A model generated the notes under the pieces. It was not told the DNA's origin and did not search any database. It worked only from the letters and a program-made list of their open reading frames with translations. A DNA stretch of 34,517 nt from Oscillospiraceae bacterium (GTDB taxonomy: Bacteria; Bacillota; Clostridia; Oscillospirales; Oscillospiraceae): the NCBI GenBank assembly GCA_017516925.1, contig JAFXAQ010000052.1:1-34517 (forward strand), read 5' to 3'. A program made the translations under genes and the position numbers. Of this stretch, positions 20,218 to 34,517 are shown piece after piece. The stretch's first letter is position 1. Each line of letters starts with the position of its first letter.

Positions 20218-20253
20218 AAAAGGCCTCCTGTCAAATTAAATTTTACCACATTT

Positions 20254-20282
20254 AGTATAGCATAGAATTTTCCGGTACGCAA
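20254..20282 (-). promoter_or_regulatory. Predicted promoter of the rhamnose operon
   Basis: On the minus strand TTGCGT (20277-20282) and TATACT (20254-20259) are spaced by 17 bases. No regulator gene for rhamnose lies in the window. No clear catabolite-repression site was recognised. Confidence 0.55.
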
Positions 20283-20334
20283 GGCGTATTGTTCTGCAGT
20301 CTGAAGATTTTTCTCCGGTCTATAGTTCCCGGGG

Positions 20335-20363
20335 TTGTTTTCCTTGGCATTTTCTGTTATACT
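20335..20363 (+). promoter_or_regulatory. Predicted promoter of the surface protein gene
   Basis: TTGTTT (20335-20340) and TATACT (20358-20363) are spaced by 17 bases, about 35 bases before the ATG at 20398. Confidence 0.5.
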
Positions 20364-20397
20364 GTTGTCAATGCTGAAGAAAGCGAGAAAATAGTCT

Positions 20398-21800
20398 ATG
20401 AATGTAAAACGATTACTTGCTATTTTACTGGCGGCGGTTTTGCTGCTGGGTCTGCTGGCAGGAATTTTGCCCAATGTATCTGCTGCCGGGGTGTATACGG
20501 TCGGTTTGCAAACAGCATCCATCAAAATACCGTCTCGGCAGAAGCCGGAGAAGAGGTAGAGCTGTACGTATACCTTGCCAACAACCCGGGTGTTATCAGC
20601 GTCGGTGTTACGCTGAATTGTCCCAAGGGAATTTCTGTTGTCAAGGCGCAGGGCACCTTGCGCGTAAGTGGTTCTACCCCTGTCTGGCAGTTTTCTCAAA
20701 CCACAGCCACCAACCCCTATCTGGTTTGGGTGCTGATACCCAACAGACTTGTGACCGATAACGGCAATATCTGTAAAGTCACATTCTCTGTGTCAGATAC
20801 CCTGGCACCGGGAGATTATACCATCAAGCTGTCTGCCCCCGGGGATAAGAACCTGACGGCGAAAACCTCCGGCAGTGTCATAGATCCCAAAACCAACCAA
20901 AAAGTAACCGGCCTTACCACTGCCGATTTTACCGTTACGGTTAAGCCCTCCACCTGCCAGCACCAGTGGGGCGCCTGGGAGACGGAAAAGCAAGCAACCT
21001 GCGAAGAAGCGGGCAAGGAGGCCCGGCAGTGCGCAGCTTGCCAAAACACCCAGCAGCGGACGATTGATGCCACCGGACACCGTTTTACTGCCTGGACAAG
21101 CGTAAAAAAAGCAACCTGTACCCAAGAGGGGCAACAAAAACGCGCCTGCTCCAATGCGGGCTGCACCTATTCTGAAACCCAGAACCTTGCAGCCCTGGGT
21201 CACAGCTTTGGACAGTGGACTGTAGTCAAGGAAGCCACCTGCGTTGCAAAGGGTGAGAGAACAAAAACCTGCGCTACCTGTCAACAGAAGGTTACAGAAG
21301 CAATTGCTGAGACCGAACATAAATTTGAAGCGCCGAAAACCACCAAGGCGCCTACCTGTACCCAGCCGGGTGAGGAAACCGGCAAATGCAGCCTCTGCGG
21401 AAAAACCACCAAAAACGTCTTGCCTGCCTTGACTCACGATTTCGGTCAGCCGGAGGTTGTCCGGGAAGCAACTGCTGCAGTTCCCGGCCTGAAGCGGAGC
21501 AAATGTACCCGCTGTAATGCGGTTGAGGAAACAGAAATCCCCTGCACAACAGACCCCACCCAACAGACGGAGGCAGAAACAGAGCCTGTAACCCAGGCCC
21601 AAACAGAGGCCACTACGGAAGAAACGGTAGCTGCAACCCAGCCCAACCAGCCGCAACAGACGGAACCAACCGACAATAAGCAAGCCTTGTACTTGGTTAT
21701 CGGTGTGGCTGGCGCATTGCTGCTGGCTATCCTCATAACCGTGATTGTGATGCTGTCCACCGGCCACAAAAAGAAGGAAAATATCGAGGACTGGCTGTAA
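20398..21800 (+). pseudogene. Cohesin-like, Cys-repeat cell-surface protein, frameshifted after the signal peptide
   Basis: The ATG at 20398 starts a clear signal peptide (MNVKRLLAILLAAV..., cleavage near VSAAG). That frame ends at TAG 20557-20559 after 53 codons. The rest lies in the -1 frame from about 20528. One extra A in the run at 20524-20527 would join them seamlessly (SIK-NTVSAEAGEEV), giving 467 residues. The order is then a cohesin-like beta domain, five ~38-residue repeats with the pattern ATC-x-GxxxxxC-xx-C (the fifth has lost its first Cys), a Thr/Glu/Gln linker, a transmembrane helix and a Lys-rich tail. It would be anchored with its domains outside. The function is unknown, probably binding. 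Confidence 0.8.
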
Positions 21801-21852
21801 ACCATAGGACGCAGTGTTTGACTTAAAAAACATCCGTCCTTATCGCCAATAT

Positions 21853-21878
21853 GTAGGGGACAATGCCACATTGTCCCG
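21853..21878. repeat. Short palindromic element
   Basis: A stem gggacaatg/cattgtccc with a three-base loop is preceded by GTAG. It lies between the surface protein gene and the asnA terminator and may serve as a weak terminator for the former. The GTAGGGG-palindrome form resembles interspersed repeats of Clostridia, from memory only. Confidence 0.4.
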
Positions 21879-21885
21879 ATAAGAA

Positions 21886-21912
21886 AAGGCTTGACCAAAT
21901 TGGTCAAGCCTT
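21886..21912 (-). terminator. Terminator of asnA
   Basis: A perfect 12-base stem aaggcttgacca/tggtcaagcctt with a three-base loop, starting five bases past the asnA stop. On the minus strand it runs into TTCTT. Confidence 0.8.
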
Positions 21913-21916
21913 GCTT

Positions 21917-22924
21917 TTATAGAAGGGGAATATTGTTTTCTTTGCAAATCTGCAGGGTGTCCTCGTCCCACAGGCTGGTTTGCACCTCACCGATGTGGGC
22001 GCAACCAATGAGCAGCATACAAAGACGGCTTTGCCCAATGCCGCCGCCGATGGTCAGGGGCAGCTCGCCGTTTAAGAGCATTTTGTGGAAGGGAAGCTCC
22101 CGCCGGTCATCACAGCCGGCTTCTCGTAATTGCCGGTCCATAGCCGCCTGGTCTACACGAATGCCCATGGAGGAGATTTCAAAGGCGATGCCCTACAAGT
22201 CGTTCCAGAATATGATGTCGCCGTTTAAGGTCCAGTCATCGTAGTCCGGAGCACGGTTGCCGTGGGTCTTACCGGAGCGCAGCTTGTCGCCGATTTTCAT
22301 AATAAAGGCGGTTTTGTGCTCCTTTAAGTACAGGTGCTCCCGCTCCTCCGGTGTGTTCTCCGGATACATATCCTCCAGCTCCTGGCTGGTTACAAAGCTG
22401 ACCTCTCGCTTTAATTCCACCTTGATTTGGGGGAATTCCTTTTTCAGCGCCTCGCTGGCATCACAAATCACATCAACGATTGCCTGAACGGTCTGCTTCA
22501 AATAGTCTTCCGTTCTGTCTTCCTTGGAAATCATTCGCTCCCAGTCCCACTGGTCCACGTAAATAGAGTGAATATTATCCAAATCCTCATCACGGCGAAT
22601 GGCATTCATATCGGTGTACAAGCCCTCGTGCATGGCAAAACCGTACTTTTTCAGGGCAAGCCGTTTCCACTTTGCAAGAGAATGTACCACCTGCGCATAG
22701 TTGCCGATGGCAGGAATATCAAAAGCAACCGCCCGTTCCTTGCCGGTCAGGTCATCGTTCAGACCGGAAGTGGATGCCACAAACAAGGGGGCAGAAACCC
22801 GCAAAAGATGCAGATTCTGGGTAAACTCCCCTTGGAATATTTCTTTGGTCAGGGCGATGGCGCGCTGCAGCTCATAGCTGCTGAGCACCGGCTGATACCC
22901 CTGCGGAATAATTACTTTGTTCAT
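21917..22924 (-). pseudogene. asnA: Aspartate--ammonia ligase with internal in-frame TAG
   Basis: Reading from the ATG at 22924 (AGGAGGG six bases ahead) gives a 335-codon AsnA, close to the family's ~330. It would make asparagine from aspartate, ammonia and ATP. Codon 244 (22193-22195) is TAG. The same frame continues without gap: WNDL[18 protein letters not shown], where E. coli AsnA has [19 protein letters not shown]. The tail keeps [16 protein letters not shown], the ATP-binding end. The loss looks like a single change from TTG (Leu). The truncated 243-residue product would lack the C-terminal catalytic part. The rest of the gene shows no other damage, so the event is recent, suppressed, or a sequencing error. 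Confidence 0.85.
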
Positions 22925-22954
22925 AGAAATCCCTCCTGGGAAAAAGTTGCAATT

Positions 22955-22984
22955 AGTATACCACGGAACCACAGATAAAGTCAA
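22955..22984 (-). promoter_or_regulatory. Predicted promoter of asnA
   Basis: On the minus strand TTGACT (22979-22984) and TATACT (22955-22960) are spaced by 18 bases. The -35 box lies in the T-rich tail of the upstream terminator. Confidence 0.6.
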
Positions 22985-22986
22985 CA

Positions 22987-23017
22987 AATATCGCCCGGCT
23001 ATTTGCCGGGCGATATT
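22987..23017 (-). terminator. Terminator of the Hdr-Flx-Frd operon
   Basis: A perfect 13-base GC-rich stem aatatcgcccggc/gccgggcgatatt with a five-base loop, one base after the transporter stop codon. It is followed on the minus strand by TTGTTGACTTT. Confidence 0.85.
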
Positions 23018-23018
23018 G

Positions 23019-24182
23019 TTATCCAAAAATCAGGGGAATAAATTGACAGCACAAAACTACGAAAATCAGCGCTACAGGATAGGTGGCAGCATAAGCGGTG
23101 GCAACCGCCTCTGTTTTGGTCACTGCCATCAGTGTACCCAGGGCGGGGGTAGATGTCATACCGCCGCAGATAGAGCCAAGGGCGCTGAGTACGTCAATCT
23201 TGAATATGTGAACCGCCAAAATGTAGCCGATGACCATAGGCACCAGTGTCATTACCGCACCCCACAGGAACAGGGCAACACCCTGTTGAGCGAGGACATC
23301 CAGGAAGCCCTTACCGGCTTCGGTGCCTGCACCCATCAAAAACAGGGCAAGACCCACTTCCCGAACCACATTCAGTGTTTTTTTCGGCACATCAATGGCA
23401 ACAGGGCCTATATGGGCAAAGTGCCCGAATACCAGACCGGTGAGCAGGGGACCGCCGGAGGTACCCAGAGAGAATTCTGCGCCACCGGGCAGTGGGATGA
23501 CGATTTTGCCGATGAGAACACCCAGCACAGCCGCCACCGCAAAGGGCAGCAGACCAAACTCCTCCAGATGCTTGTATTCTTTCTTTTCTACAGGCTTGCC
23601 ATCAGCATCTGCCGTACAGGACAGGGCAGCCAAGCGCTCCCGTTCTGCAGCAACGTCGATTTTCAAAATCTTGGGAATCAACTGCACGAACAGCACCACG
23701 CCCACAACACCAAAGGGATAGGCGATGCCGTAACCCACAGAGGCGAGGTCGCTACCGGTTGCTTCAATGGCGGCTGCAAGACCGGGGGTGGAGGTCAGTG
23801 CGCCGGACATCATACCCACCGCCAAATCGGTCTCAATACCTGCCAGCTTCATAACCGCTACGCAGGTGGCGGCACCGGCAAGAATAATCACAAAGCCCAG
23901 TACCACATAGGAAATGGCGGATTTTTTAAAATTACGGAAGAAACCGGGTCCTGCAATAAAGCCCACAGCGGTAACAAAGCAGATAAGACCGATGTTCTTC
24001 AGTGCAGCAGGAACCAGCAGGTTAAAGTGACCGAACACCAGCGCAACAATCAAGATACCGGAGGTACCCAGATTCAGTCCCTTAATGGATATGCTGCCCA
24101 GCAAATAACCCAAGGCGGCAATGCAGAACACAATTACAATGTCGTTGGTGAAAACGTTCTTGAGAAAATCAAGAATTCCCAT
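23019..24182 (-). CDS. AspT/YidE/YbjL-family antiporter without RCK domains
   Basis: A 387-residue carrier made of two homologous membrane halves (about 1-180 and 210-387). Each carries the family signature: GMMSGALTSTPGLAAA in the first and GSICGGMTSTPALGTL in the second. Known members such as AspT (aspartate:alanine exchanger) are about 540-560 residues and hold two RCK_C domains in the central loop. Here the loop is only ~30 charged residues. It begins 19 bases after the frdA-like stop, ahead of a terminator, so it is the last gene of the redox operon. I infer transport of a dicarboxylate or aspartate linked to the reductase, perhaps succinate export; the substrate is not proven. Confidence 0.85.
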   Translation of the reverse strand: MGILDFLKNVFTNDIVIVFCIAALGYLLGSISIKGLNLGTSGILIVALVFGHFNLLVPAALKNIGLICFVTAVGFIAGPGFFRNFKKSAISYVVLGFVIILAGAATCVAVMKLAGIETDLAVGMMSGALTSTPGLAAAIEATGSDLASVGYGIAYPFGVVGVVLFVQLIPKILKIDVAAERERLAALSCTADADGKPVEKKEYKHLEEFGLLPFAVAAVLGVLIGKIVIPLPGGAEFSLGTSGGPLLTGLVFGHFAHIGPVAIDVPKKTLNVVREVGLALFLMGAGTEAGKGFLDVLAQQGVALFLWGAVMTLVPMVIGYILAVHIFKIDVLSALGSICGGMTSTPALGTLMAVTKTEAVATAYAATYPVALIFVVLCCQFIPLIFG

Positions 24183-24201
24183 ATCTTATTACACCTCTGC
24201 T

Positions 24202-25800
24202 TTACTTTTCGTGCCGAGCGTACTTGGGCAGGAGCAACGGAGAAACACCGGTTTCGTTCAGACCTGCCTGCTCCAGCTCCTTGGCATAAGCCTGAATGTG
24301 GTCCAGATTGGGCTTACCCAAAGTGACAGTTTTTGCCTTGGCGGCAGCAGCCTTACCGGCATTTCTGCCGAAAACGATGATGTCCAGCAGGGAGTTACCC
24401 ATCAGTCGGTTGCGTCCGTGGATACCGCCTACAGCCTCGCCGGCAACCAGCAGGTTGGGGATAGCCTTGGTAAAGCCCTCACCGCCGATTTCCAGACCGC
24501 CGTTTTGGTAGTGCAGAGTGGGATATACCAGAATGGGGACCTTCCGCATATCAATGCCGTAGTTTAAGTACATACGCAGCATTGCGGGAATTCTCTTTTC
24601 AATGGTGCCCTCACCACCCAGAATTTCAATCATTGGGGTGTCCAGCCAAACGCCGCTGCCCAGAGGGGTATCCACACCCTTGCCGTTTGCGCATTCCCGA
24701 ATGATGGCAGATGCGGAAACATCTCTTGTTTCAAGAGGATGGGCATATGCCTCGCCGTCTTTGTTAACGAGCATAGCACCTAAAGAACGAACCTTTTCGG
24801 TAACCAGCGCACCGAAAATCTGGCTGGGATATGCCACGCCGGTGGGGTGATACTGAATGGTGTCCTGATACAGAAGGGGTGCGCCTGCCCGGTAGCCCAG
24901 CACCAGACCGTCGGCGGTGGCGCCGTAGTGGTTAGAGGTGGGGAAGCCCTGATAGTGCAGACGACCTGCGCCGCCGGTGGCGATGATCACGGTCTTAGCC
25001 TTGGCAACCAGATAGTCGCCGGTTTCCATATTCAGAAGAACCGCACCGGCAACCTGCCCCTTGTCGTCCTTAATCAGTTCCACAGCGGAGGTGAACTCCA
25101 CAACGGGAATTTGACGGTTGATAACCTCGTCACGGACGGTACGCATAATTTCTGCACCGGAGTAGTCCTTGCAGGCGTGCATACGCTTCCGGGAGGTACC
25201 GCCGCCGTGGGTGGTGACCATGGTGCCGTCTTCTTCCTTGTCGAACATGACACCCAGCTCGTTGAGCCAGCGAATGGCATCGGGCGCTTCCATAACCAGG
25301 CGGCGCAGCAGCTCCGGACGGGCAGCAAAGTGACCGCCGCCAAAGGCATCCAGATAGTGCTGAACCGGAGAGTCGTTGGGCTTATCGGCAGCCTGAATGC
25401 CACCTTCTGCCATCATGGTATTGGCATCGCCAATACGCAGCTTGGTGACAATCATAACGTTTGCACCGGCTTCGTGGGCCTCAATAGCCGCAGATGCGCC
25501 GGCACCGCCACCGCCGATGACCAGGACGTCAACGTCGTAAGCGGGGTTGTCCAGGTTGATATTCTCGTTTAACAGGCGGCTGTTGCTGTGCAGCAGCTGC
25601 GCCAGTTCCAGAGGTGCCTTTTGACCCTTGTTGGGACCGATTTTGATTTCCGCAAAGCCCTCAGCCCGGTAGTCGGGATGGTAAGCCTTCAGAAGCTCGG
25701 ACTTTTCCTCAGCAGTCATTCTGCGAGGCTCTGTTTGCATACGCGCAGCACGGGAGGCCTCCACTTTTTTGATGGATTCCAGCATATTCTCTGTAAACAT
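24202..25800 (-). CDS. Fumarate-reductase-type flavoprotein subunit
   Basis: A 532-residue FAD enzyme of the FrdA/SdhA/NadB family. An unusual ~85-residue N-terminal extension precedes the Rossmann motif VIGGGGAGASAA (94-105). Substrate and catalytic residues are kept: QYHPTG (His318), TEKVR (Glu335), TRD (Arg359), LHYQNGG (His430) and GRNRLMGNSLL (Arg463/465). Where FrdA/SdhA attach FAD covalently through RSHT, this protein reads GDANTMMAEGG, so FAD should be non-covalent, as in TfrA or NadB. It lies 12 bases after the Fe-S subunit gene and has AGGAGGG before its ATG. It probably reduces fumarate to succinate; another enoate, or aspartate oxidation, is less likely. Confidence 0.85.
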   Translation of the reverse strand: MFTENMLESIKKVEASRAARMQTEPRRMTAEEKSELLKAYHPDYRAEGFAEIKIGPNKGQKAPLELAQLLHSNSRLLNENINLDNPAYDVDVLVIGGGGAGASAAIEAHEAGANVMIVTKLRIGDANTMMAEGGIQAADKPNDSPVQHYLDAFGGGHFAARPELLRRLVMEAPDAIRWLNELGVMFDKEEDGTMVTTHGGGTSRKRMHACKDYSGAEIMRTVRDEVINRQIPVVEFTSAVELIKDDKGQVAGAVLLNMETGDYLVAKAKTVIIATGGAGRLHYQGFPTSNHYGATADGLVLGYRAGAPLLYQDTIQYHPTGVAYPSQIFGALVTEKVRSLGAMLVNKDGEAYAHPLETRDVSASAIIRECANGKGVDTPLGSGVWLDTPMIEILGGEGTIEKRIPAMLRMYLNYGIDMRKVPILVYPTLHYQNGGLEIGGEGFTKAIPNLLVAGEAVGGIHGRNRLMGNSLLDIIVFGRNAGKAAAAKAKTVTLGKPNLDHIQAYAKELEQAGLNETGVSPLLLPKYARHEK

Positions 25801-25812
25801 ACGTAGCCCTCC

Positions 25813-26487
25813 TTACTTCTCAATGTCCCGGGTGTTATACAGTTCCTGCATTTCGGAAATTGGCTTCTGCATAACCTGTTCAATCAGCGCATCATATTCA
25901 CCACGGTTGATTTCGCCAACACGGTCATAAACATGGGCGCTTTCCGGAGCTACATACTTACCCACAAGACGGCGGGCAAGCAGACCTACCATAGGATGGG
26001 AGATTTCCGCAGGACAGCGGACAGAGCAGCAGCCGCAGCTGACGCAGTCGAAGGATTCCTCTGCGCACTTTTCCAGCTCGCCCCGCTGGGCATAGGCAAT
26101 GTATTGCATAACATTTAAGCTTTGGGTACAGGCCTTGGTACAGGCATTACAGCCGATACAGCTGTAGATTTCCGGATACAGCTCCATCATCACCTGCTGA
26201 TTGGGCTTCAAATCCTTAATTTCATAAGCACGCTTGTCAGTGGGGAAGAAGGGAATGGACGCAATGTACATACCCTCCTGCACCTGAGTCTGGCAAGCCA
26301 GACAGGTTTTCAGCTCGTTGCAGCCCTTGATGCGGTAGATGGTAGCGCAGGCGCCGCAGAAACCGTGACGGCAGCCACAGCCCCGGGTCAGGGTATAACC
26401 GGCATATTCCATAGCAGTCATAATGGTTAAATCACCGGGAACCTGATACCGCTTGCCGAAGAAATAAACATTTACAAGATTTTCCAT
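25813..26487 (-). CDS. Fumarate-reductase-type iron-sulfur subunit
   Basis: A 224-residue Fe-S protein. The N-terminal half is a plant-type ferredoxin domain (RGCGCRHGFCGAC, then CLAC) for a [2Fe-2S] cluster. The C-terminal half has two 4Fe-4S motifs, CIGCNACTKAC (Cys110, 113, 116, 120) and CVSCGCCSVRCP (Cys148, 151, 154, 158). This is the FrdB/SdhB/TfrB layout, but with two full CxxCxxCxxxC sets and no CCG domains as in TfrB. I take the ATG at 26487, because AAAGGA has proper spacing there; the ATG at 26499 abuts it. No membrane-anchor subunit follows, so the complex should be soluble and fed by the adjacent Flx/Hdr proteins. Confidence 0.85.
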   Translation of the reverse strand: MENLVNVYFFGKRYQVPGDLTIMTAMEYAGYTLTRGCGCRHGFCGACATIYRIKGCNELKTCLACQTQVQEGMYIASIPFFPTDKRAYEIKDLKPNQQVMMELYPEIYSCIGCNACTKACTQSLNVMQYIAYAQRGELEKCAEESFDCVSCGCCSVRCPAEISHPMVGLLARRLVGKYVAPESAHVYDRVGEINRGEYDALIEQVMQKPISEMQELYNTRDIEK

Positions 26488-26505
26488 ATTGGCAATCATC
26501 CTTTC

Positions 26506-27366
26506 TTAGTATTCTGCAGGTAATTCATCAATCTGGTCACAGCGGAACACGGGACCGTCTTTGCAGACGTACTTGGAGCCGATGTTGCAGCGACCGCATT
26601 TACCGACGCCGCACTTCATACGCAGCTCCAGGGTGGTGTAAACCTGCTGCTTGGAAAAGCCCATTTCCTGCAGTGCCTGCAGGCAGAACTTAATCATAAT
26701 GGGAGGACCGCACAAAATGGCGGTGCGATTGGTGTCAAATGCCAGCTCTTTTAAGTAGGTGGGAACGAAGCCTACATTGCCGTCCCAGCCCTCCTGGGGG
26801 CGGTCAATGGTCAGGTAAACGTTCACATCTGCGGTTTTCATCCACACTTCCTGAATTTCCTTCAGCTGCACCAAATCGTCAGCGCTGCGGGCACCGTAGA
26901 GGATATCCACGTGACCGTAATTCTGGCGGTTATCCAGAACATAGTTGATAACGCTGCGCAGCGGTGCCAGAGCAATACCACCGGCGATAAACAGAAGATT
27001 TTGCTTCTTCAGCTCTGTTTCCACCGGGAAATGATTGCCGTAAGGACCTCTCACCGTTACCTGGTCGCCAACCTCTAAGGAGTGAAGGCAATCAGTGAGA
27101 ACACCGCACTTTTTAATGCTGAATTCCTGATATTCCTTGTTGGTGGGGGAGGAGGTAATGGAGAACATTGCCTCGCTGACACCGGGCACACAAATCATTG
27201 CGCACTGACCGGGCATATGCTCGAAGAATTTACCGCCCTGAGGAGGCTCGATCCGGAAGGTCTTTACATCAGGGGTTTCCTGCCGGATGTCAGTGATGAC
27301 GCCCACCTGGGGAATCAGGGTGTCATGTATAAAACCGGGATGGCAGGTACATTCGTGCTCGTGCAT
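26506..27366 (-). CDS. flxA: FlxA-like FAD/NAD(H) oxidoreductase subunit
   Basis: A 286-residue ferredoxin-NADP-reductase-fold protein like FlxA, HydG/AsrB and PyrK. The FAD domain (FRIEPPQGG, AMFSITSSP) is followed by a nucleotide domain with FIAGGIALAPLRSVI and ILCGPPIMIKF. A C-terminal Cys cluster MKCGVGKCGRCNIG...C (Cys252, 257, 260, 268) suits a [2Fe-2S] site. It is the expected NADH entry point of the complex. The ATG at 27366 shares a base with the upstream stop (TGATG) and has AGGAGGG six bases ahead; a GTG at 27369 is less well placed. The His-rich start HEHECTCH is unusual. Confidence 0.88.
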   Translation of the reverse strand: MHEHECTCHPGFIHDTLIPQVGVITDIRQETPDVKTFRIEPPQGGKFFEHMPGQCAMICVPGVSEAMFSITSSPTNKEYQEFSIKKCGVLTDCLHSLEVGDQVTVRGPYGNHFPVETELKKQNLLFIAGGIALAPLRSVINYVLDNRQNYGHVDILYGARSADDLVQLKEIQEVWMKTADVNVYLTIDRPQEGWDGNVGFVPTYLKELAFDTNRTAILCGPPIMIKFCLQALQEMGFSKQQVYTTLELRMKCGVGKCGRCNIGSKYVCKDGPVFRCDQIDELPAEY

Positions 27367-28391
27367 CACTTACCCTCCTTTCCAAAGGCTTTGATAACTT
27401 TTACAATGTTCAAATGGCTGGGGCACTTATCCACGCAGCGACCGCAGCCTACACAGGAGTACATTCCGTCATTGTTGGCGGGGAAGTACACCAGCTTGTG
27501 CATAAACCGCTGGCGGAACCGCTGCAGCTGGCTGGTACGGTTGTTGCCGTGAGCCATCATAGTAAAGTCAGAGTACATACAGCTGTCCCAGCAGCGATAC
27601 CGCTGAACACCGTTTCCGGTGTTGTAGTCCTTAATGTCATAGCACTGACAGGTAGGACAAACAAAAGTACAGGTGCCGCAAGCCAGACAGGGCTTGTAAA
27701 GGGTTTCCCAAAGGGGAGAATTGAACTTTTCGTTCAGCGCTTCTCCGTTCCAGCCCTCCAAAGAAAGGGCTGCGTAGGGGAGCTTCTCTACAATTTTGCC
27801 AATAGCTTCTTTTTGCGCAGTCACTGCAGCGTCGTCGCTGTCTTCCAGCAAGTCGGCAACCAGCGCAGTCAGCTTTTCACCCTTTTCGGTGACCGGCTTC
27901 CAGTAGAGATAATCCTCTGTCAGCCAGGTGACCACATCACCCTCAGGCTCTGCGCAGTCAATACCGAACACCTTGCAGAAGCAGCTTTCCTCCGGCGCAC
28001 CGCAAGCCAAGGACACAATGGTGCCGTGGCAGCGGCGGGCAGCATAAAAGCTGTCCACGGGCTCTGCCAGAAATACTTTGTCCAGCACGGCAATGCCACG
28101 GACATCACAGCCCTTGATGCCGAATACCACAAAGCTTTCGCTTTGCAGGTCTTCGGGGGTGATTGTGATGTTCTTGCCGTCCCGGTGGCAGTGATACAGA
28201 GTTTCACTCTGGGGGAAGAAGGCATCCTTTGCGGATTTAACAGTCTTAAGAGTTTGCAAATCCACATCACAAGCTTCTGTCCACAGACTGAAATTGGTTT
28301 TACCGGCAGTTTTCACCGGCAATATCAGGCTTTGCGCCTTGGCAATGGCCGCATACAGCTTGGGAAGGTTGGAAATGGCTATTTTCTTCAT
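27366..28391 (-). CDS. HydB/AsrA-like 4Fe-4S dicluster protein (FlxB/FlxC type)
   Basis: A 341-residue cytoplasmic electron carrier. The first ~230 residues match the HydB/AsrA pattern (FGIKGCDVRGIAVLDKVF, ARRCHGTIVSLACGAPEESCFC). Two 4Fe-4S motifs follow: CLACGTCTFVCP (Cys235-245) and CVGCGRCVDKCP (Cys313-323). In sulfhydrogenases and anaerobic sulfite reductase this subunit pairs with the FlxA-like flavoprotein encoded next to it, as here. It overlaps the previous gene by four bases (ATGA) and has GGGAGG upstream. It would pass electrons from the NADH-oxidising subunit toward HdrA/FlxD. I do not assign B or C by sequence alone. Confidence 0.82.
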   Translation of the reverse strand: MKKIAISNLPKLYAAIAKAQSLILPVKTAGKTNFSLWTEACDVDLQTLKTVKSAKDAFFPQSETLYHCHRDGKNITITPEDLQSESFVVFGIKGCDVRGIAVLDKVFLAEPVDSFYAARRCHGTIVSLACGAPEESCFCKVFGIDCAEPEGDVVTWLTEDYLYWKPVTEKGEKLTALVADLLEDSDDAAVTAQKEAIGKIVEKLPYAALSLEGWNGEALNEKFNSPLWETLYKPCLACGTCTFVCPTCQCYDIKDYNTGNGVQRYRCWDSCMYSDFTMMAHGNNRTSQLQRFRQRFMHKLVYFPANNDGMYSCVGCGRCVDKCPSHLNIVKVIKAFGKEGK

Positions 28392-29350
28392 TTGGTACCT
28401 CCCTCTGCTACAACGCTGGGCTCAGCGTCGTCTGCGGTGAAGCTGGTCAGAGGACCCCTTGCCTCTGCATCCGCACCTGCCTGGTATTCGCCGTACAGGG
28501 TGTTGATGTCCTTAATAAACTTCCGGTTGAACAGGTGCAGCGGAATGCCCTGGGGGCAGACACGGCTGCACTCACCGCAGTCGGTGCAGCGACCGGCTAC
28601 GTGGAAGGCCCGGATAATATGGAACATTTTCTCCTCAAAGGAGTCTACATTTGCCTTCTGGGCGCTGTCGAACTTGTCGCTGTCAAATACGCACTTGCGG
28701 CAGGAACAGGCGGGACACACATTCCGGCAGGCATTGCAGCGGATGCACTTAGAAAGCTCCTTTTGGAAGAAGGCAAATTTCTCCGCCGGGCTCATAGCCT
28801 CGATCATTTGCACCTGAGCAAAGCGGTCGGCGGTAGAGGTATCCTCACTTTCACCAATCAGCTCGTCATACACAACGTGCTCCTTGCCCTTACACACGTG
28901 GCAACGGTCCAGCATAGCGGCTTTGTAAGACACTTCCGTGTTGCCGTAGAGGGTTTCCACCTGCAGCGGGTCGGTGTCGTTGACGGACAGGATGCCCTTG
29001 ACACCGGCTCGTTTCACGTTTTCAATGCTGAGCTTACCCTTGCAGCCCACACCGATGATGTAGGTCTTTTCCCGGTCTACCCGGTGCTCGGACAAAAGCT
29101 GGTTAAAGCTGTAGCTGTCGCAGGGCTTCAGGCAGACCAGGGTCTTGCCCTCCAGCTTGGAGGCTTCAATCATATATTTGCTGAGATTTGCAGCGCAGAA
29201 ATTGTTATACACAAAAGTCTGCATATCTTCTTCGCTTTCAAAGAAGGCAGGCTCCGGATCGTATGTATTTTCGCCGATTCGCCAACCCAGAACCCGCTTG
29301 ACAGTGCCATCCTTCAGGAGCGCCAATGCTCGGTTTTTTACTTCTTGCAT
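28388..29350 (-). CDS. FrhB-like 4Fe-4S dicluster protein (FlxB/FlxC type)
   Basis: A 320-residue Fe-S protein. The N-terminal part (VCLKPCDSYSFNQLL, YIIGVGCKGKLS, DRCHVCKGK) recalls the FrhB/FdhB family, whose members bind a flavin. Two 4Fe-4S motifs sit at CIRCNACRNVCP (Cys202-212) and CTDCGECSRVCP (Cys255-265). Extra cysteines (CPACSCRKC) directly after the first motif could hold another cluster. It overlaps the FlxD gene by 13 bases. The C-terminal ~35 residues are a low-complexity tail. It is inferred to be an electron conduit in the Flx module. Confidence 0.8.
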   Translation of the reverse strand: MQEVKNRALALLKDGTVKRVLGWRIGENTYDPEPAFFESEEDMQTFVYNNFCAANLSKYMIEASKLEGKTLVCLKPCDSYSFNQLLSEHRVDREKTYIIGVGCKGKLSIENVKRAGVKGILSVNDTDPLQVETLYGNTEVSYKAAMLDRCHVCKGKEHVVYDELIGESEDTSTADRFAQVQMIEAMSPAEKFAFFQKELSKCIRCNACRNVCPACSCRKCVFDSDKFDSAQKANVDSFEEKMFHIIRAFHVAGRCTDCGECSRVCPQGIPLHLFNRKFIKDINTLYGEYQAGADAEARGPLTSFTADDAEPSVVAEGGTK

Positions 29351-29775
29351 CTTAAATCCCCCAATCGCACATTCTCGCCAAGACTGCGGATTTTCTCCAC
29401 AAAGTCATTCATAACCGTGGAGAACTTTACACCTTCTGCAGCGGAGACCCATTCCACCCGGGTACGTCCGTTTTCCACACCCATAAAGTCCAGCATGGAA
29501 AACAGCAGCGTCATACGGCGGCGGGCATAGTAGTTGCCGGTGGAGTAGTGGCAGTCACCGGGGTGGCAGCCACACAAAATCACACCGTCAGCACCCTTTT
29601 CAAAGGCGCGGAGAATAAACATGGGATTGACCCGGCAGGAGCAGGGGACACGGATAATCTTCACATCGGCAGGATAGCTCAGACGGGAAGAACCGGCAAG
29701 GTCTGCGCCTGCGTAGCTGCACCAGTTGCAGCAAAACGCCACGATTTTCGGGCGAAACTCTTGATTTACCGACAT
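29338..29775 (-). CDS. flxD: MvhD/FlxD family linker subunit
   Basis: A 145-residue protein of the methyl-viologen-reducing hydrogenase delta family. It has conserved cysteines at 15, 16 and 19 (FCCNWCSYAGAD), 45 and 47 (RVPCSCRVNP), and 68, 70 and 75 (ILCGCHPGDCHY). In the structurally known MvhD-HdrA complex this [2Fe-2S] protein hands electrons from the donor module to HdrA. The ATG at 29775 has GGAGGTGG ahead and overlaps the end of hdrA by ten bases. Its place between hdrA and the Flx genes matches its role as physical link. Confidence 0.93.
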   Translation of the reverse strand: MSVNQEFRPKIVAFCCNWCSYAGADLAGSSRLSYPADVKIIRVPCSCRVNPMFILRAFEKGADGVILCGCHPGDCHYSTGNYYARRRMTLLFSMLDFMGVENGRTRVEWVSAAEGVKFSTVMNDFVEKIRSLGENVRLGDLRCKK

Positions 29776-31754
29776 ATTGCATCCACCTCCGCGATAAGTT
29801 GTCTGTTGGAAAAGCCCTGCAGGTCCATAGCACCGGAGGGACAAGTGACGGTACAAGCGCCACAGCCCTGACACAGGGCCTTGTTCACCACCGCAATCCG
29901 GCGATCCTCCCGGATGCCATGGTCATTGACCTGACGGGTTTCGTAAGTGATTGCGCCGTAGGGACAAACCTTAGCGCAGTTAGAGCAGCCGTTACACAGC
30001 AGCTCATCTGCCTGGGCTGTGCAGGGGTTGGTGGTCAGCTTATCCTTGGCAAGCAGTCCGATAACCTTCACTGCGGCAGCGCCTGCCTGAGAAACAGTCT
30101 CGGGAATATCCTTGGGACCCTGGCATACACCGGACAGGAACACACCGGCGGTGGGGGATTCCACAGGGCGCAGCTTGGGGTGCGCCTCTGTCAGGAAGTT
30201 GTTGGTGTCAATGGAGGCGGTGAGCATGGTGGCAATGTTACGCACACCCTGATTGGGCTCAATTGCGGTAGCCAAAACCACCATATCCGCCTTAATCTTA
30301 ATTTGCTTGTTATCAATCAGGTCAGAACCCTGCACCAGGAGACTTCCGTCAGGCTGGGGCGCAACCTTGCCCACCTGACCTTTGATGTAGTTGACGCCGT
30401 ACTCCTCTACAGCTCTGCGGTAGAATTCGTCGAAGTTCTTTCCGGGGGTACGGACATCAATGTAGAATACCGTCACATTTACATCCGGATACTTATCCCG
30501 AATGAGCATAGCGTGCTTTGCTGTATACATACAGCAGATTTTGGAGCAGTAAGGCTTGCCTCGCTCGTCGGAGCAACGGCTGCCAACACACTGCACAAAT
30601 ACAATTTCCTTGGGCGCCTTGCCGTCAGACAGACGCTCTAAGTGTCCCTTGGTAGGACCTGCGGCATTCATAATGCGCTCCAGCTCCAAAGAGGTGATCA
30701 CATCCTTACTCTGGGAGTAAGCATATTCGTCATATTTATCCAGCTTGATAGTGTCAAAGCCGGTGGCAACCACAATGGCGCCGTATTTTTCGGTAATGAT
30801 TTCGTCTTCCTGAGCGTAATTGATGGCGCCTGCCTGACAGACCTTTTCACACACACCGCACTTGCCGGTCTTAAACTTGATGCAAGCCTCCCGGTCAATC
30901 ACAGGTACGTTGGGGATTGCCTGGGCGAAGGGCGTATAGATGGCGCTGCGGTTGTTAAGACCACGGTTGAACTCGCTGGGCGTTTTCTTGGAAGGACATT
31001 TCTCCTGGCAGACACCGCAGCCGGTGCACTTGGCTTCGTCAACACTTCTTGCCTTCTTGCGGATGTCCACGGTAAAGTCACCCACAAAGCCGGAAACCTT
31101 TTCCACCTCACTGTAGGTGTAAATCTTAATCTTTTCGTGACCGGCCGCATCCACCATCTTGGGCGTTAGGATACAGGCGGAGCAGTCCAGGGTGGGGAAG
31201 GTCTTGTCCAGCTGAGACATACGGCCACCGATGGAGGGAGTCTTTTCTACAATGTCCACCTCATAACCGGCATCGGCAATATCCAAAGCAGTCTGGATAC
31301 CGGCGATACCGCCGCCAATCACCAGCGCCCGCTTGGTCACACGGCTTTCGCCTGCCTGCAGCGGGGCATTCAGGTTTACCTTGGCGATAGCAGCCCGGGC
31401 TAAAATCACAGCCTTTTGGGTGGCTTCTTCCATATCCTTATGTATCCAGGAGCAATGCTCACGGATGTTGGCGATTTCCACCATATAGGGGTTCAGACCA
31501 TAGCGCTCTGCGCACTTACGGAAGGTAGCCTCATGCATCCGGGGAGAGCAGGAGCACACCACAAGACCTGTCAGATTGTACTCCTTGATGGCAGCGCCGA
31601 TTTTGGCCTGACCGGCTTCAGAGCACATATACTGGTAGTCATCAGCAAAGACAACACCTGGCTCCAGCCGTGCCATTTCCGCAACCTTTTTTACATCCAC
31701 CGTTGCGGCAATGTTACTGCCGCAATGGCATACAAATACACCAATTCTTTGCAT
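29766..31754 (-). CDS. hdrA: Heterodisulfide reductase subunit A
   Basis: A 662-residue HdrA, the flavin-based bifurcating subunit. It contains an N-terminal Cys pair (FVCHCGSN), an FAD Rossmann motif VIGGGIAGIQTA (145-156), GGRMSQLDKTFPTLDCSACILTPK, and an inserted ferredoxin-like part with CTGCGVCQEKCP (243-253) and CGVCEKVC. A thioredoxin-reductase-like half and two C-terminal 4Fe-4S motifs follow, CNGCSNCAKVCP (587-597) and CQGCGACTVTCP (628-638), the expected ferredoxin port. I take ATG 31754, because AGAGGTG is properly spaced there; a GTG at 31763 abuts it. Confidence 0.95.
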   Translation of the reverse strand: MQRIGVFVCHCGSNIAATVDVKKVAEMARLEPGVVFADDYQYMCSEAGQAKIGAAIKEYNLTGLVVCSCSPRMHEATFRKCAERYGLNPYMVEIANIREHCSWIHKDMEEATQKAVILARAAIAKVNLNAPLQAGESRVTKRALVIGGGIAGIQTALDIADAGYEVDIVEKTPSIGGRMSQLDKTFPTLDCSACILTPKMVDAAGHEKIKIYTYSEVEKVSGFVGDFTVDIRKKARSVDEAKCTGCGVCQEKCPSKKTPSEFNRGLNNRSAIYTPFAQAIPNVPVIDREACIKFKTGKCGVCEKVCQAGAINYAQEDEIITEKYGAIVVATGFDTIKLDKYDEYAYSQSKDVITSLELERIMNAAGPTKGHLERLSDGKAPKEIVFVQCVGSRCSDERGKPYCSKICCMYTAKHAMLIRDKYPDVNVTVFYIDVRTPGKNFDEFYRRAVEEYGVNYIKGQVGKVAPQPDGSLLVQGSDLIDNKQIKIKADMVVLATAIEPNQGVRNIATMLTASIDTNNFLTEAHPKLRPVESPTAGVFLSGVCQGPKDIPETVSQAGAAAVKVIGLLAKDKLTTNPCTAQADELLCNGCSNCAKVCPYGAITYETRQVNDHGIREDRRIAVVNKALCQGCGACTVTCPSGAMDLQGFSNRQLIAEVDAICR

Positions 31755-31759
31755 ACGTG

Positions 31760-32137
31760 TCACCTCTTATATCTTCTGTAGGCGCTGACCAACAGCTGCT
31801 GGGGCAGGTCCTCGTCTACAAGAGGGGGGATTTCTTCAGCGGTCAGGTAATTGCCGCCACGCTGGCGCACCACAATCTGCCGCGCCGCATCCAGAATTCG
31901 ACCGGGCTGTACATCCCGGGGGCAGCGCTCCACACAGGCGAAGCAGCTTAAGCACTTCCACATGGACTTGCACGCAGCCAAGGCTTCAATGTTGCCGCTT
32001 TGTACATAGGATACAAACTGATGGGGCTTAATATCCATTTCCTCGTAAGCGGGGCAGGTGGCGGAGCATTTGCCGCACTTCATACATTTATAAGGATTGA
32101 CACCGCTGATTTGTTGCACCTGTTCTTTTGCATTCAT
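31760..32137 (-). CDS. hdrC: Heterodisulfide reductase subunit C
   Basis: A 125-residue ferredoxin-like protein with two 4Fe-4S motifs, CMKCGKCSATCP (Cys18-28) and CLSCFACVERCP (Cys62-72), and the PHQFVSYVQSGN stretch typical of HdrC. It carries electrons between HdrA and the CCG subunit HdrB. Its ATG shares one base with the hdrB stop codon (TAATG), so translation is coupled. Confidence 0.94.
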   Translation of the reverse strand: MNAKEQVQQISGVNPYKCMKCGKCSATCPAYEEMDIKPHQFVSYVQSGNIEALAACKSMWKCLSCFACVERCPRDVQPGRILDAARQIVVRQRGGNYLTAEEIPPLVDEDLPQQLLVSAYRRYKR

Positions 32138-32925
32138 TACAGCGCACCCTCCTTCACACCCAAGGCCTCTGCCAGCAGCTCCGTGAAATAGTAAACCGGC
32201 AGTCCTTGTTCAGTTTTGTTCAGATTATAACGGCACAGTGGACAGGCGGTGATAAAGCACTCCGCACCAAAGCCCTTTGCGCTTTCGTTAATGGTATTGC
32301 ACATATTTTTTGCCATATCCGGCTCTTTGAGAGATATGTAACCGCCGCAGCACTCATTGCGGTAGGGATATACCACCGGCTCTGCGCCCAGCGCCCGGAT
32401 AAAGTCCTCCAACAGCTTGGGGTTTTCCGGGTCGTCCAGCGCCATAATCTTGCCGGGACGCAGCAGCAGACACCCATAGTAAGCGGCAATTTTCTGTCCC
32501 GTGAGGGGATTGACAACCTTTTCCTTCAACGTGTCAAAACCAACCACATCCCGAAGTACCTCCAGGAAGTGCAGCACCTTGGTTTCACCTGCGTAAGGCT
32601 CAGCAAGCTTCATATAATTGTTGGCTCTTGTGCGGATGTCCTCCACATTGGTCATATCATCATTGACACGCTTAAGCACGTGATGACAGGCAGAGCAGAG
32701 GGTTACCAGGTCCTGTCCTTTATCCTTGGCTTCTGCCAATGCCCGGACAGAGGAGAGCTTGGAAGCAATTTCGTCAGTCCCCAAAGGATATACACCGCCG
32801 CAGCACTGCCAGTTGTCCAACTCCTGAAGTGTGAAACCCAAAGCCTCGGCAGATGCCCTTGCGTAAGCATCCAGGTCTTTGGCCTTGTTTCGCAGGGTAC
32901 AGCCGGGATAGTAACTAAAAATCAT
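32137..32925 (-). CDS. hdrB: Heterodisulfide reductase subunit B
   Basis: A 262-residue protein with two complete CCG domains. The first uses Cys9, Cys41-42 and Cys77/Cys80 (QCCGGVYPL, TLCSACHHV); the second Cys152, Cys192-193 and Cys228/Cys231 (ECCGGYISL, TACPLCRYN). In methanogen HdrB these hold non-cubane [4Fe-4S] clusters that cleave a disulfide; all ten cysteines are here. I choose ATG 32925, which has AAAGGA about ten bases ahead and leads straight into FSYYPGC. It is the first gene of the ten-gene operon. The natural disulfide, if any, is unknown, since bacteria lack CoM-S-S-CoB. Confidence 0.95.
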   Translation of the reverse strand: MIFSYYPGCTLRNKAKDLDAYARASAEALGFTLQELDNWQCCGGVYPLGTDEIASKLSSVRALAEAKDKGQDLVTLCSACHHVLKRVNDDMTNVEDIRTRANNYMKLAEPYAGETKVLHFLEVLRDVVGFDTLKEKVVNPLTGQKIAAYYGCLLLRPGKIMALDDPENPKLLEDFIRALGAEPVVYPYRNECCGGYISLKEPDMAKNMCNTINESAKGFGAECFITACPLCRYNLNKTEQGLPVYYFTELLAEALGVKEGAL

Positions 32926-32993
32926 ACAAGCACAATCCTTTCTGTAAGAGATTTTAATCAATGCAAATATATCAATAATATTCTATCAGTACT

Positions 32994-33021
32994 ATTATAA
33001 TGAATTTACGGGAAAAAGCAA
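32994..33021 (-). promoter_or_regulatory. Predicted promoter of the Hdr-Flx-Frd operon
   Basis: On the minus strand TTGCTT (33016-33021) and TATAAT (32994-32999) are 16 bases apart, followed by a ~65-base AT-rich leader to the hdrB ATG. The 198-base gap between hdrB and the lipoprotein gene holds no other recognised element, apart from a weak caaaatgcttttg palindrome near 33101-33113. Confidence 0.55.
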
Positions 33022-33123
33022 CAAAAAATGCGAAAAAATTAAAAAACTGCATATAATACAAAAAAAGCAATTTCAGGAAAAGTTCTTTGTTTAAAAACAC
33101 AAAATGCTTTTGCGAAAAACCTG

Positions 33124-33519
33124 CTAAGCGCTTCGTAAAATGCTGTAAAATTTGGCTGCAATTTCCGGATTGAGTTCCACCCAGGGCTTTTTCGGCGCCT
33201 TAAAATACCGGTGCCCGGCCAAGGCATACGTGCGGATGGCGCCGTCAGATAAGCGCAGGGAAACCAAAAAGTAATTTTGCTGTGCAGTTTCCTTAACCGG
33301 CACCACCTTATTTCGGGATTTTACGCTCCGCAGGCAATTTAAAACAGCCTCAATAATTTGGGTATCCGTATAATTTTTTGTAAATTGCAAATCCTGATGC
33401 TGTCCGGAAATTTCCATTTCAACAACGAAACGGCATAAGGGTTCTGCCTCTTTTTGACATCCGGAAAGAGCGCATATCATCAAGCAAAAAATCAAGAGTA
33501 TTATGAAAGCACGCTTCAT
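33124..33519 (-). CDS. Small putative lipoprotein
   Basis: A 131-residue secreted protein that I do not recognise. A lipoprotein signal peptide (MKRAFIILLIFCLMICALSGC) places the lipidated Cys at residue 21. The mature part (about 110 residues) is mixed alpha/beta with no clear enzymatic motif; VSLRLSDGAIRTYALAGHRYF suggests a small beta-rich fold. The start at 33519 follows AAGGTG. It lies downstream of asnS, separated by a terminator and an 80-base gap, and is probably transcribed alone. It is the one intact gene in the window that ends with TAG. Confidence 0.75.
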   Translation of the reverse strand: MKRAFIILLIFCLMICALSGCQKEAEPLCRFVVEMEISGQHQDLQFTKNYTDTQIIEAVLNCLRSVKSRNKVVPVKETAQQNYFLVSLRLSDGAIRTYALAGHRYFKAPKKPWVELNPEIAAKFYSILRSA

Positions 33520-33598
33520 CCCAACACCTTCTTTCTGTGTTAGGATGCGCCCGTTTATGACATCTATCGCCGGAAAATAACAGAAACAATACCAAATA

Positions 33599-33632
33599 AA
33601 AATGGCTGGCCCGGAAACGAGCCAGCCAAAAT
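33599..33632 (-). terminator. Terminator of asnS
   Basis: A stem tggctggc/gccagcca (33603-33610 with 33621-33628), extended by A:T pairs, ends on the minus strand in ATTTTTATT just past the asnS stop. Confidence 0.8.
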
Positions 33633-33638
33633 TTTCCA

Positions 33639-34517
33639 TTACAGTTCGCAGTTGCCCACAGTTCTGGGGAAGGGGAGCACGTCCCGGATGTTGCCCATAC
33701 CGGTCAGGTACATCACGCAGCGCTCAAAGCCCAGACCAAAGCCTGCGTGACGGGCAGAGCCGTACTTCCGCAGGTCCATATAGAAGCCGTAATCCTCGGG
33801 GTTCATACCCAGCTCCTCAATACGTGCCTTCAGCAGCTCGTAGTTATCCTCACGCTGGCTGCCGCCGATAATTTCACCGATGCCGGGTACCAGACAGTCC
33901 ATAGCGGCAACTGTCTTTCCGTCGGGGTTCAGCTTCATATAGAAGGCCTTGATTTCCTTGGGATAGTCCGTAACGAACACAGGACGCTTGAACACTTCTT
34001 CTGTCAGATAACGCTCGTGCTCAGTCTGCAGGTCACTGCCCCAATGAACGGGATACTGGAATTTGTCGTTGCATTTCTCCAGAATCTCGATGGCCTCGGT
34101 ATAGGTCACGTGACCAAACTCAGAGTTCAGCACGTGGTTCAGCCGGTCCAAAAGACCCTTGTCGATAAACTGGTTGAAGAAGTTCATTTCCTCAGGGGCT
34201 TTTTCCAGCACATAGGCGATGATATACTTAATCATATCCTCAGCCAGGCGCATATCGTCCGCCAGGTCCGCAAAGGCAATTTCCGGCTCAATCATCCAGA
34301 ATTCCGCAGCGTGGCGGGTGGTGTTGGAGTTCTCTGCCCGGAAGGTGGGACCGAAGGTGTAGATGTTCTTAAATGCCATGGCAAAGGTCTCACCGTTCAG
34401 CTGACCGGACACGGTCAGGTTGGTGGGCTTGCCGTAGAAATCCTGAGAGAAATCCACCTTGCCGTCTTCGGTCTTGGGAACATCGTTCAGGTTCAGGGTG
34501 GTCACCTGGAACATTTC
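33639..34517 (-). CDS. asnS: Asparaginyl-tRNA synthetase, C-terminal part (cut by window end)
   Basis: The last 292 codons of a class IIb aminoacyl-tRNA synthetase; the start lies beyond the window. Visible are motif 2 ([25 protein letters not shown]) and motif 3 ([26 protein letters not shown]). Leu-Thr-Val-Ser-Gly-Gln near the left end is typical of AsnRS. The PFPRT ending with few acidic residues separates it from AspRS. It charges tRNA-Asn with asparagine, so the cell needs an asparagine source even though asnA in this window is interrupted. Confidence 0.95.

What the first reader, a model, noticed from the sequence alone, without database searches (positions are those of the whole stretch)
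23019..33021. One operon joins a full HdrABC-Flx bifurcation module to a soluble fumarate reductase and an AspT-like carrier
Ten minus-strand genes run hdrB, hdrC, hdrA, flxD, two Fe-S carriers, flxA, frdB-like, frdA-like and transporter. The hdr-flx genes overlap by 1-13 bases, apart from a 5-base gap between hdrC and hdrA. The last four genes are separated by 12-19 bases. One promoter is seen before hdrB and one terminator after the transporter. HdrABC-Flx complexes are known to couple NADH oxidation to ferredoxin and disulfide chemistry, and methanogen TfrAB couples thiols to fumarate. Here the Frd pair lacks both a membrane anchor and the CCG domains of TfrB, while HdrB supplies CCG domains. 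I infer a soluble supercomplex that oxidises NADH and splits electrons between fumarate (or another enoate) and ferredoxin or a disulfide. The carrier would exchange the substrate and product.
Basis: partly seen in the sequence, partly recalled or inferred. Interest (0 to 1): 0.88.

Follow-up and report, generated by a model that had tools for sequence, protein, structure and literature searches.

The report
NADH-driven soluble fumarate reductase operon
A gut bacterium carries one operon that probably lets it make succinate from NADH while storing part of the energy as reduced ferredoxin; the arrangement is real and shared by many gut Clostridia, but it was already proposed for another succinate producer.

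Summary
The ten-gene minus-strand operon is real: hdrB, hdrC, hdrA, flxD, two Fe-S carriers, flxA, frdB, frdA and a short AspT-family carrier. Relatives show that nine genes form a unit. Among the 80 loci kept from one scan, all 57 with at least 7.6 kb upstream of frdA hold hdrBCA-flxDCBA-frdBA in this order on one strand. In a 297-genome sample of the order, FrdA occurs in 53, a close HdrA in 52, both in 51. A fumarase-like gene lies in the stretch in 56 of 58 full loci, so the substrate is very likely fumarate. FrdA catalytic residues and the cluster cysteines of FrdB and HdrB are conserved. Best reading: a soluble, electron-bifurcating NADH:ferredoxin/fumarate reductase. It is not new in kind: a 'succinate operon' with the same blocks in the same order is published for Pseudoclostridium thermosuccinogenes (PMC7282089). 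I found no biochemical proof; the physical complex and the bifurcation are inferred. Against exclusivity: in the wider phylum 10 of 20 inspected places lack hdr genes in view. The carrier is adjacent in only 45 of 71 loci.

The parts
32137..32925 (-). hdrB: two CCG domains; all ten cysteines for two noncubane clusters
   Evidence: PF02754 twice; closest solved relatives are HdrB chains such as 8rvv_B and 5odc_B; ten Cys in 85 of 85 relatives aligned; start ATG read
31760..32137 (-). hdrC: two [4Fe-4S] cluster motifs
   Evidence: eight cluster Cys in 83 of 83
29766..31754 (-). hdrA: FAD protein with ferredoxin domains, presumed site of bifurcation
   Evidence: nearly full-length match to 5odc_A, 695 bits; ferredoxin-type cluster cysteines in 84 of 84
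29338..29775 (-). flxD (MvhD/FlpD-like [2Fe-2S] protein)
   Evidence: PF02662; 170 bits to 5odc_D
28388..29350 (-). flxC-like Fe-S protein
   Evidence: 4Fe-4S dicluster domain; the name flxC rests on position and length, recalled
27366..28391 (-). flxB-like Fe-S protein (AsrA / sulfhydrogenase beta family)
   Evidence: PF17179; NF040829 185 bits, below its cut-off of 690
26506..27369 (-). flxA: FAD/NAD(P)H-binding subunit, presumed NADH entry
   Evidence: PF00175, PF10418, PF00970
25813..26499 (-). frdB: one [2Fe-2S] and two four-cysteine [4Fe-4S] motifs, no CCG domain
   Evidence: 12 cluster Cys in 113 of 113
24202..25800 (-). frdA: fumarate reductase flavoprotein, conserved ~85-residue N-terminal extension, no match to a Succ_DH C-terminal family, Asn at the histidyl-FAD position
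   Evidence: PF00890; TfrA model 339.6 bits, below its cut-off of 718; alignments; residues
23019..24182 (-). AspT/AAEx-family carrier, short form
   Evidence: PF06826, 266 bits, two stretches; TIGR01625 above cut-off
22987..23017 (-). terminator-like stem (13 pairs)
32994..33021 (-). possible promoter: TTGCTT (33021-33016), 16 bases, TATAAT (32999-32994)
   Evidence: read from the sequence; below the threshold of the scan

Best explanation
The operon encodes a soluble, anchor-free, electron-bifurcating fumarate reductase. FlxA takes hydride from NADH; FlxB, FlxC and FlxD pass electrons to the FAD of HdrA. HdrA splits them: one path reduces ferredoxin, the other runs through HdrC and the noncubane clusters of HdrB to the Fe-S clusters of FrdB and the FAD of FrdA, where fumarate becomes succinate. 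Net: 2 NADH + fumarate + 2 Fd(ox) to 2 NAD+ + succinate + 2 Fd(red). With textbook potentials (recalled: fumarate +33 mV, NADH -320 mV, ferredoxin -420 to -500 mV) this is about -33 to -49 kJ/mol, so the coupling can run; the reverse would be as strongly uphill. The AspT-like carrier most likely exports succinate or exchanges it for a dicarboxylate. Shown here: gene content, conserved linkage, conserved cofactor and active-site residues, fumarase neighbours in relatives. Inferred: the complex, the direct HdrB-to-FrdB step, NADH as donor, ferredoxin as second acceptor, and the transport role.
For: 57 of 57 informative loci keep hdrBCA-flxDCBA-frdBA in order and strand. Of 297 genomes of the order (own genome included), 51 have both FrdA (E up to 1e-60) and a close HdrA (E up to 1e-100), 2 have FrdA only and 1 HdrA only, so in this sample the close HdrA goes almost only with FrdAB. 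A fumarase-like gene in 56 of 58 full loci: class II fumC directly upstream of hdrB (three of three tested above the TIGR00979 cut-off) or class I fumarase downstream. FrdA active-site residues 119-120 of 120, FrdB ligands 113 of 113, HdrB ligands 85 of 85. hdrBC-frdBA without hdrA nearby in L112 and L117. In the own genome no DsrC, no other PF02754 match and no Sdh cytochrome. Independent proposal for P. thermosuccinogenes (PMC7282089, passages).
Against: HdrB keeps all disulfide-site ligands, so it could still reduce a disulfide. In the wider phylum the Frd gene often stands without hdr genes in view (10 of 20 places), while 13 of 18 such or related genomes tested have HdrA relatives elsewhere, so there the two are not tied. 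L112 and L117 belong to genomes that have HdrA elsewhere, which weakens them as minimal modules. The own genome is 84% complete, so absences (DsrC, Rnf) are weak. No fumarase lies in the window beside the operon; the own genome has one on contig C4.
Confidence: 0.65

Rival explanations
1. HdrABC-Flx works as a separate NADH:ferredoxin/disulfide oxidoreductase and FrdAB takes its electrons from a small thiol, from ferredoxin or from another carrier; the genes share an operon only for co-regulation.
For: HdrB keeps all ten cysteines of a disulfide-reducing site; the Frd family also occurs without hdr genes in view and in two loci beside a cytochrome b561-type gene (L121, L122); 13 of 18 genomes of this sort tested have HdrA relatives elsewhere. 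Another group assigns HdrABC-FlxABCD of a termite symbiont to sulfite reduction (PMC12887300, passages). D. vulgaris Flx-Hdr is thought to use DsrC (recalled).
Against: No DsrC found in the own genome; near-complete co-occurrence in the order; hdrBC-frdBA pairs without hdrA nearby (L112, L117).
Confidence: 0.2
2. FrdAB reduces an enoate other than fumarate.
For: FrdA lies below the curated cut-off of each of the 25 NCBIfam families shown, of 59 matched; the [Clostridium] asparagiforme locus L155 has a lyase-superfamily gene and no recognised fumarase in the stretch.
Against: Fumarase-like gene in 56 of 58 full loci; lactate/malate dehydrogenase family gene in 46 of 58; succinyl-CoA synthetase, malic enzyme, pyruvate carboxylase or 2-oxoacid:ferredoxin oxidoreductase beside single wider relatives; fumarate-type active site.
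Confidence: 0.1
3. The complex runs backwards as a succinate dehydrogenase that confurcates succinate and ferredoxin electrons to NAD+.
For: Flavoproteins of this family are reversible in principle (recalled).
Against: Strongly uphill with textbook potentials (recalled); P. thermosuccinogenes, with the same block layout, makes succinate.
Confidence: 0.05

Closest known systems
'Succinate operon' of Pseudoclostridium thermosuccinogenes (PMC7282089; it cites preprint 10.20944/preprints201912.0288.v1, not seen)
   Same: By locus tag: fumarase, then a Flx-Hdr block (seven tags if numbered in fives), then two fumarate reductase genes, then a possible succinate transporter; bifurcation to ferredoxin assumed there (passages).
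   Different: Sequences and the order inside the Flx-Hdr block not compared (that genome was not retrieved); in the window the fumarase is on another contig and the carrier is a recognisable AspT-family protein.
korABCD-tfrAB-flxABCD-hdrABC clusters of tubeworm symbionts and Thioflavicoccus (PMC6315080, passages)
   Same: Tfr/Frd-like pair interspersed with flx-hdr genes; direct electron transfer suggested there.
   Different: Autotrophic rTCA setting with 2-oxoglutarate:ferredoxin oxidoreductase; the window operon has none.
HdrABC-MvhAGD of methanogens (PDB 5odc)
   Same: HdrA, HdrB, HdrC and MvhD/FlxD homologues with conserved cluster cysteines.
   Different: Hydrogenase replaced by the Flx proteins; FrdAB added as likely acceptor in place of CoM-S-S-CoB.
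Methanogen TfrAB thiol:fumarate reductase
   Same: FrdA scores best with the TfrA model among NCBIfam families.
   Different: FrdB lacks the CCG half of TfrB; HdrB is a separate gene.
MetVF-HdrABC-MvhD cluster of Moorella and others (described in PMC7325909, passages)
   Same: Same idea: a soluble reductase pair joined to HdrABC-MvhD.
   Different: Methylene-THF reductase instead of fumarate reductase.

Membership tests
FlxABCD-HdrABC | All seven genes contiguous with the right domains | tested here: met
   order in relatives
FlxABCD-HdrABC | NADH-dependent ferredoxin and disulfide activity | not testable with these tools
   no biochemistry
P. thermosuccinogenes-type bifurcating fumarate reductase | Flx-Hdr and Frd genes in one operon with a carrier | tested here: met
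   window; layout of the published operon
P. thermosuccinogenes-type bifurcating fumarate reductase | Fumarase in the operon | tested here: not met
   no fumarase at the window locus, own fumarase on contig C4; met in relatives
P. thermosuccinogenes-type bifurcating fumarate reductase | Sequence homology of the Frd pair to CDQ83_RS03325-20 | not tested
   no record of that name among the 80 loci returned
TfrAB thiol:fumarate reductase | TfrB with C-terminal CCG domains | tested here: not met
   frdB is 228 aa with no PF02754 match
TfrAB thiol:fumarate reductase | TfrA above the NCBIfam cut-off | tested here: not met
   339.6 bits against 718
Membrane quinol:fumarate reductase | Anchor subunits | tested here: not met
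   none in the operon; no PF01127 in the own genome (other anchor families not searched)
Membrane quinol:fumarate reductase | Covalent histidyl-FAD | tested here: not met
   Asn127 aligns with a His of SdhA, Asn in 120 of 120; the role of that His is recalled
Fumarate reductase activity | Catalytic His/Arg/Glu set | tested here: met
   H318, E335, R338, R465 in 120 of 120, H430 in 119 of 120; roles recalled from E. coli FrdA
AAEx (AspT) transporter | Two Asp-Al_Ex repeats | tested here: met
   PF06826, two stretches

The most novel reading that the evidence does not exclude
A widespread class of soluble fumarate reductases in gut Clostridia bifurcates NADH electrons to fumarate and ferredoxin, with the noncubane clusters of HdrB serving as a relay to FrdB instead of reducing a disulfide, so succinate formation conserves energy without quinones.
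Probability: 0.55. Interest if true: 0.72.

Novelty: new member of a known kind. Interest (0 to 1): 0.45.

Why it matters
If true, many gut Clostridia, including strains recorded as [Clostridium] asparagiforme DSM 15981 and Blautia schinkii MSK.6.26, gain reduced ferredoxin when they make succinate, without membrane quinones. That would change energy and hydrogen budgets in gut and rumen models and extend HdrABC-type bifurcation to a dicarboxylate acceptor. The conserved operon in named strains makes the published proposal directly testable.

Tried and rejected
Structure prediction of FrdA and FrdB, to look at the N-terminal extension and a HdrB-FrdB interface: switched off. The idea that the FrdA N-terminal extension is a docking part for Hdr: not favoured, since it is also present in relatives with no hdr genes in view. 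A thiol carrier of the DsrC type: searched, not found. An Rnf sink for the ferredoxin: not found; an [FeFe] hydrogenase was found instead. An RNA regulator: no Rfam match at gathering score in 20000-34517. Distance comparison: the other eight operon proteins correlate with FrdA at 0.74-0.88 over 77 loci plus the window, 0.58-0.78 within one group of 47, but only 0.19-0.39 within the window's own group of 29, so this adds little beyond linkage. Weak hdrC hits in L109, L111, L114, L116 and L118 fall inside frdB and one in L122 falls in the cytochrome b561-type gene; all were treated as artefacts. The identity of the lactate/malate dehydrogenase family gene upstream of many loci was not settled: one protein tested scored above the L-lactate dehydrogenase cut-off (L157). 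Papers opened by passages without a Hdr-Frd operon: PMC12887300, PMC5861303 (hits in the reference list only), PMC6046458.
Full report
Observation. The window is contig C49 of a 1.65 Mb assembly that is 84% complete. Ten minus-strand ORFs between 23019 and 32925 encode HdrB, HdrC, HdrA, FlxD, two Fe-S carriers, FlxA, FrdB, FrdA and an AspT-family carrier. The spacing claims hold once the likely ATG starts are used for hdrB, hdrA and flxD. A terminator-like stem follows the carrier and a plausible promoter precedes hdrB, but both kinds of hit are near chance level in the scan of the region.

Conservation. Of these 80, 57 have at least 7.6 kb upstream of frdA; all 57 carry the nine genes in the same order and strand, and one shorter locus does too. 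The other 22 have less upstream DNA. In an even sample of 297 genomes of the order (own genome included; completeness 85 or more asked for), FrdA (E up to 1e-60) occurs in 53 and HdrA (E up to 1e-100) in 52; 51 have both. In 49 of these the two starts lie 4.5-6.1 kb apart on one contig; in G118 and G307 the operon runs off contig ends. The genes in between were checked only for the loci fetched: of 20 places from the order and genus, 18 have all nine in order, L091 is cut by its contig end with the rest on L218, and L102 has frdBA alone. G278 and G197 have frdBA with no HdrA found; G126 has a diverged hdrA (45-47% identity) and no FrdA hit.

Wider phylum. 41 of 299 genomes had a hit, own genome included. 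Twenty-nine others hold 30 places at 53% identity or more; the remaining 11 have only 36-40% matches. I inspected 20 of the 30 places. Three have all nine genes, but not in the window's order: frdBA comes first in L108 and L115, and hdrC precedes hdrB in L120. Four have hdrABC plus flxD without the full flx set in the fetched stretch (L103, L106, L107, L110), three of them with a 2-oxoacid:ferredoxin oxidoreductase gene downstream. Two have only hdrBC beside frdBA (L112, L117). Ten have no hdr gene in view, some with little upstream DNA (L109, L111). One (L113) is cut off. Of 18 genomes chosen mainly because Frd stands there without a nearby hdrA, 13 have HdrA relatives elsewhere (E up to 1e-60). 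So the link is near absolute in the order and loose in the phylum. Within the window's genus 10 of 36 other genomes carry the gene, 4 at 90-95% identity and 6 at 69-72%, while loci titled Lachnospiraceae reach 80-87%. This suggests gene transfer between families, though no tree was built.

Substrate. A fumarase-like gene lies in the fetched stretch in 56 of 58 full loci of the 80 (the exceptions are L155 and L177) and in 16 of 18 of the order set. One group has class II fumC directly upstream of hdrB; three proteins tested, all above the TIGR00979 cut-off. The other has class I fumarase subunits downstream. The remaining fumC calls rest on about 40% identity to one fumC and could include aspartases. 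A lactate/malate dehydrogenase family gene is present in 46 of the 58; the one protein tested with NCBIfam scored as L-lactate dehydrogenase above cut-off (L157), so its identity is open. Single wider relatives sit by succinyl-CoA synthetase, malic enzyme, pyruvate carboxylase or a TRAP carrier. The window has no fumarase at the locus; the own genome has one on contig C4.

Parts. FrdA keeps the fumarate-type active site (H318, E335, R338, R465 in 120 of 120, H430 in 119 of 120; roles recalled). It has Asn where SdhA has the FAD-linking His (role recalled), an N-terminal extension of about 85 residues with no Pfam match, and no match to a Succ_DH C-terminal family. FrdB has one [2Fe-2S] and two four-cysteine cluster motifs, invariant in 113 of 113; the last motif suggests a [4Fe-4S] rather than the usual [3Fe-4S] cluster (comparison recalled). 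HdrB keeps ten cysteines in 85 of 85. HdrA and FlxD align along nearly their length with 5odc_A and 5odc_D. The denominators are the loci of 120 (80 plus 40) whose match covers at least 75% of the query.

Genome context. No DsrC, Rnf or Sdh cytochrome b was found; one [FeFe] hydrogenase was. PF02754 matched only the two domains of this HdrB. Absences are weak at 84% completeness. A simple reading is that ferredoxin reduced here feeds hydrogenase or biosynthesis (inference).

Mechanism. The best reading is NADH to FlxABCD, HdrA bifurcation, ferredoxin on the low-potential side, and HdrC-HdrB-FrdB-FrdA-fumarate on the other. It is energetically feasible by textbook potentials (recalled). The hdrBC-frdBA loci L112 and L117 fit a direct HdrBC-FrdB step; their genomes have HdrA relatives elsewhere, so this is suggestive only. 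The complex and the ferredoxin coupling are inferred. The carrier belongs to a family that includes the succinate exporter SucE1 (PMC9527358, passages).

Prior knowledge. PMC7282089 (passages) describes a 'succinate operon' with fumarase, a Flx-Hdr block, two fumarate reductase genes and a possible succinate transporter, about four-fold up under CO2 limitation, though by its own discussion not significantly so for all subunits. [quoted passage not shown] PMC6315080 (passages) suggests a similar link in tubeworm symbionts. In ten library searches I recognised no title or abstract start that describes this operon in gut Clostridia or gives biochemical proof; most of these papers were seen as listings only, and the library lacks most subscription journals.

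Verdict. A real, conserved and probably functional operon whose core hypothesis is already in print but, as far as I could find, unproven. It is a new member of a proposed kind; the added value is the breadth, the near-exclusive pairing of Hdr with Frd in this order, and the named strains in which it can be tested.

Noticed in passing
L103, L106, L107: frdBA beside hdrABC, a second very large HdrA-like protein and 2-oxoacid:ferredoxin oxidoreductase genes, an rTCA-like layout in another part of the phylum.
   Followed up: partly
L121:8153-9142, L122:8227-9213: The same Frd pair next to a cytochrome b561-type protein with a ferredoxin domain, a possible membrane-bound variant.
   Followed up: no
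L176: Flx genes resemble the window's group (71-87%) but frdBA the other group (68-72%), as if frdBA had been swapped within the operon.
   Followed up: no
L155:163-2529: The [Clostridium] asparagiforme operon is preceded by a LysR-type regulator and an adenylosuccinate lyase superfamily gene; no fumarase was recognised in the stretch.
   Followed up: no
window:24202-25800 (FrdA residues 1-85): Conserved N-terminal extension with HPD and GPNKG motifs, no Pfam match, function unknown.
   Followed up: partly
window:29766-31763: HdrA has a five-residue insertion in one ferredoxin cluster loop relative to 5odc_A; all four cysteines are kept.
   Followed up: no
window:14240-20217: Rhamnose-type sugar genes: L-rhamnose isomerase, FGGY kinase and aldolase II proteins, one fused to a short-chain dehydrogenase.
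   Followed up: no
window:22193-22984: AsnA (aspartate-ammonia ligase) follows the operon, with a promoter-like site of its own at 22984-22955.
   Followed up: no
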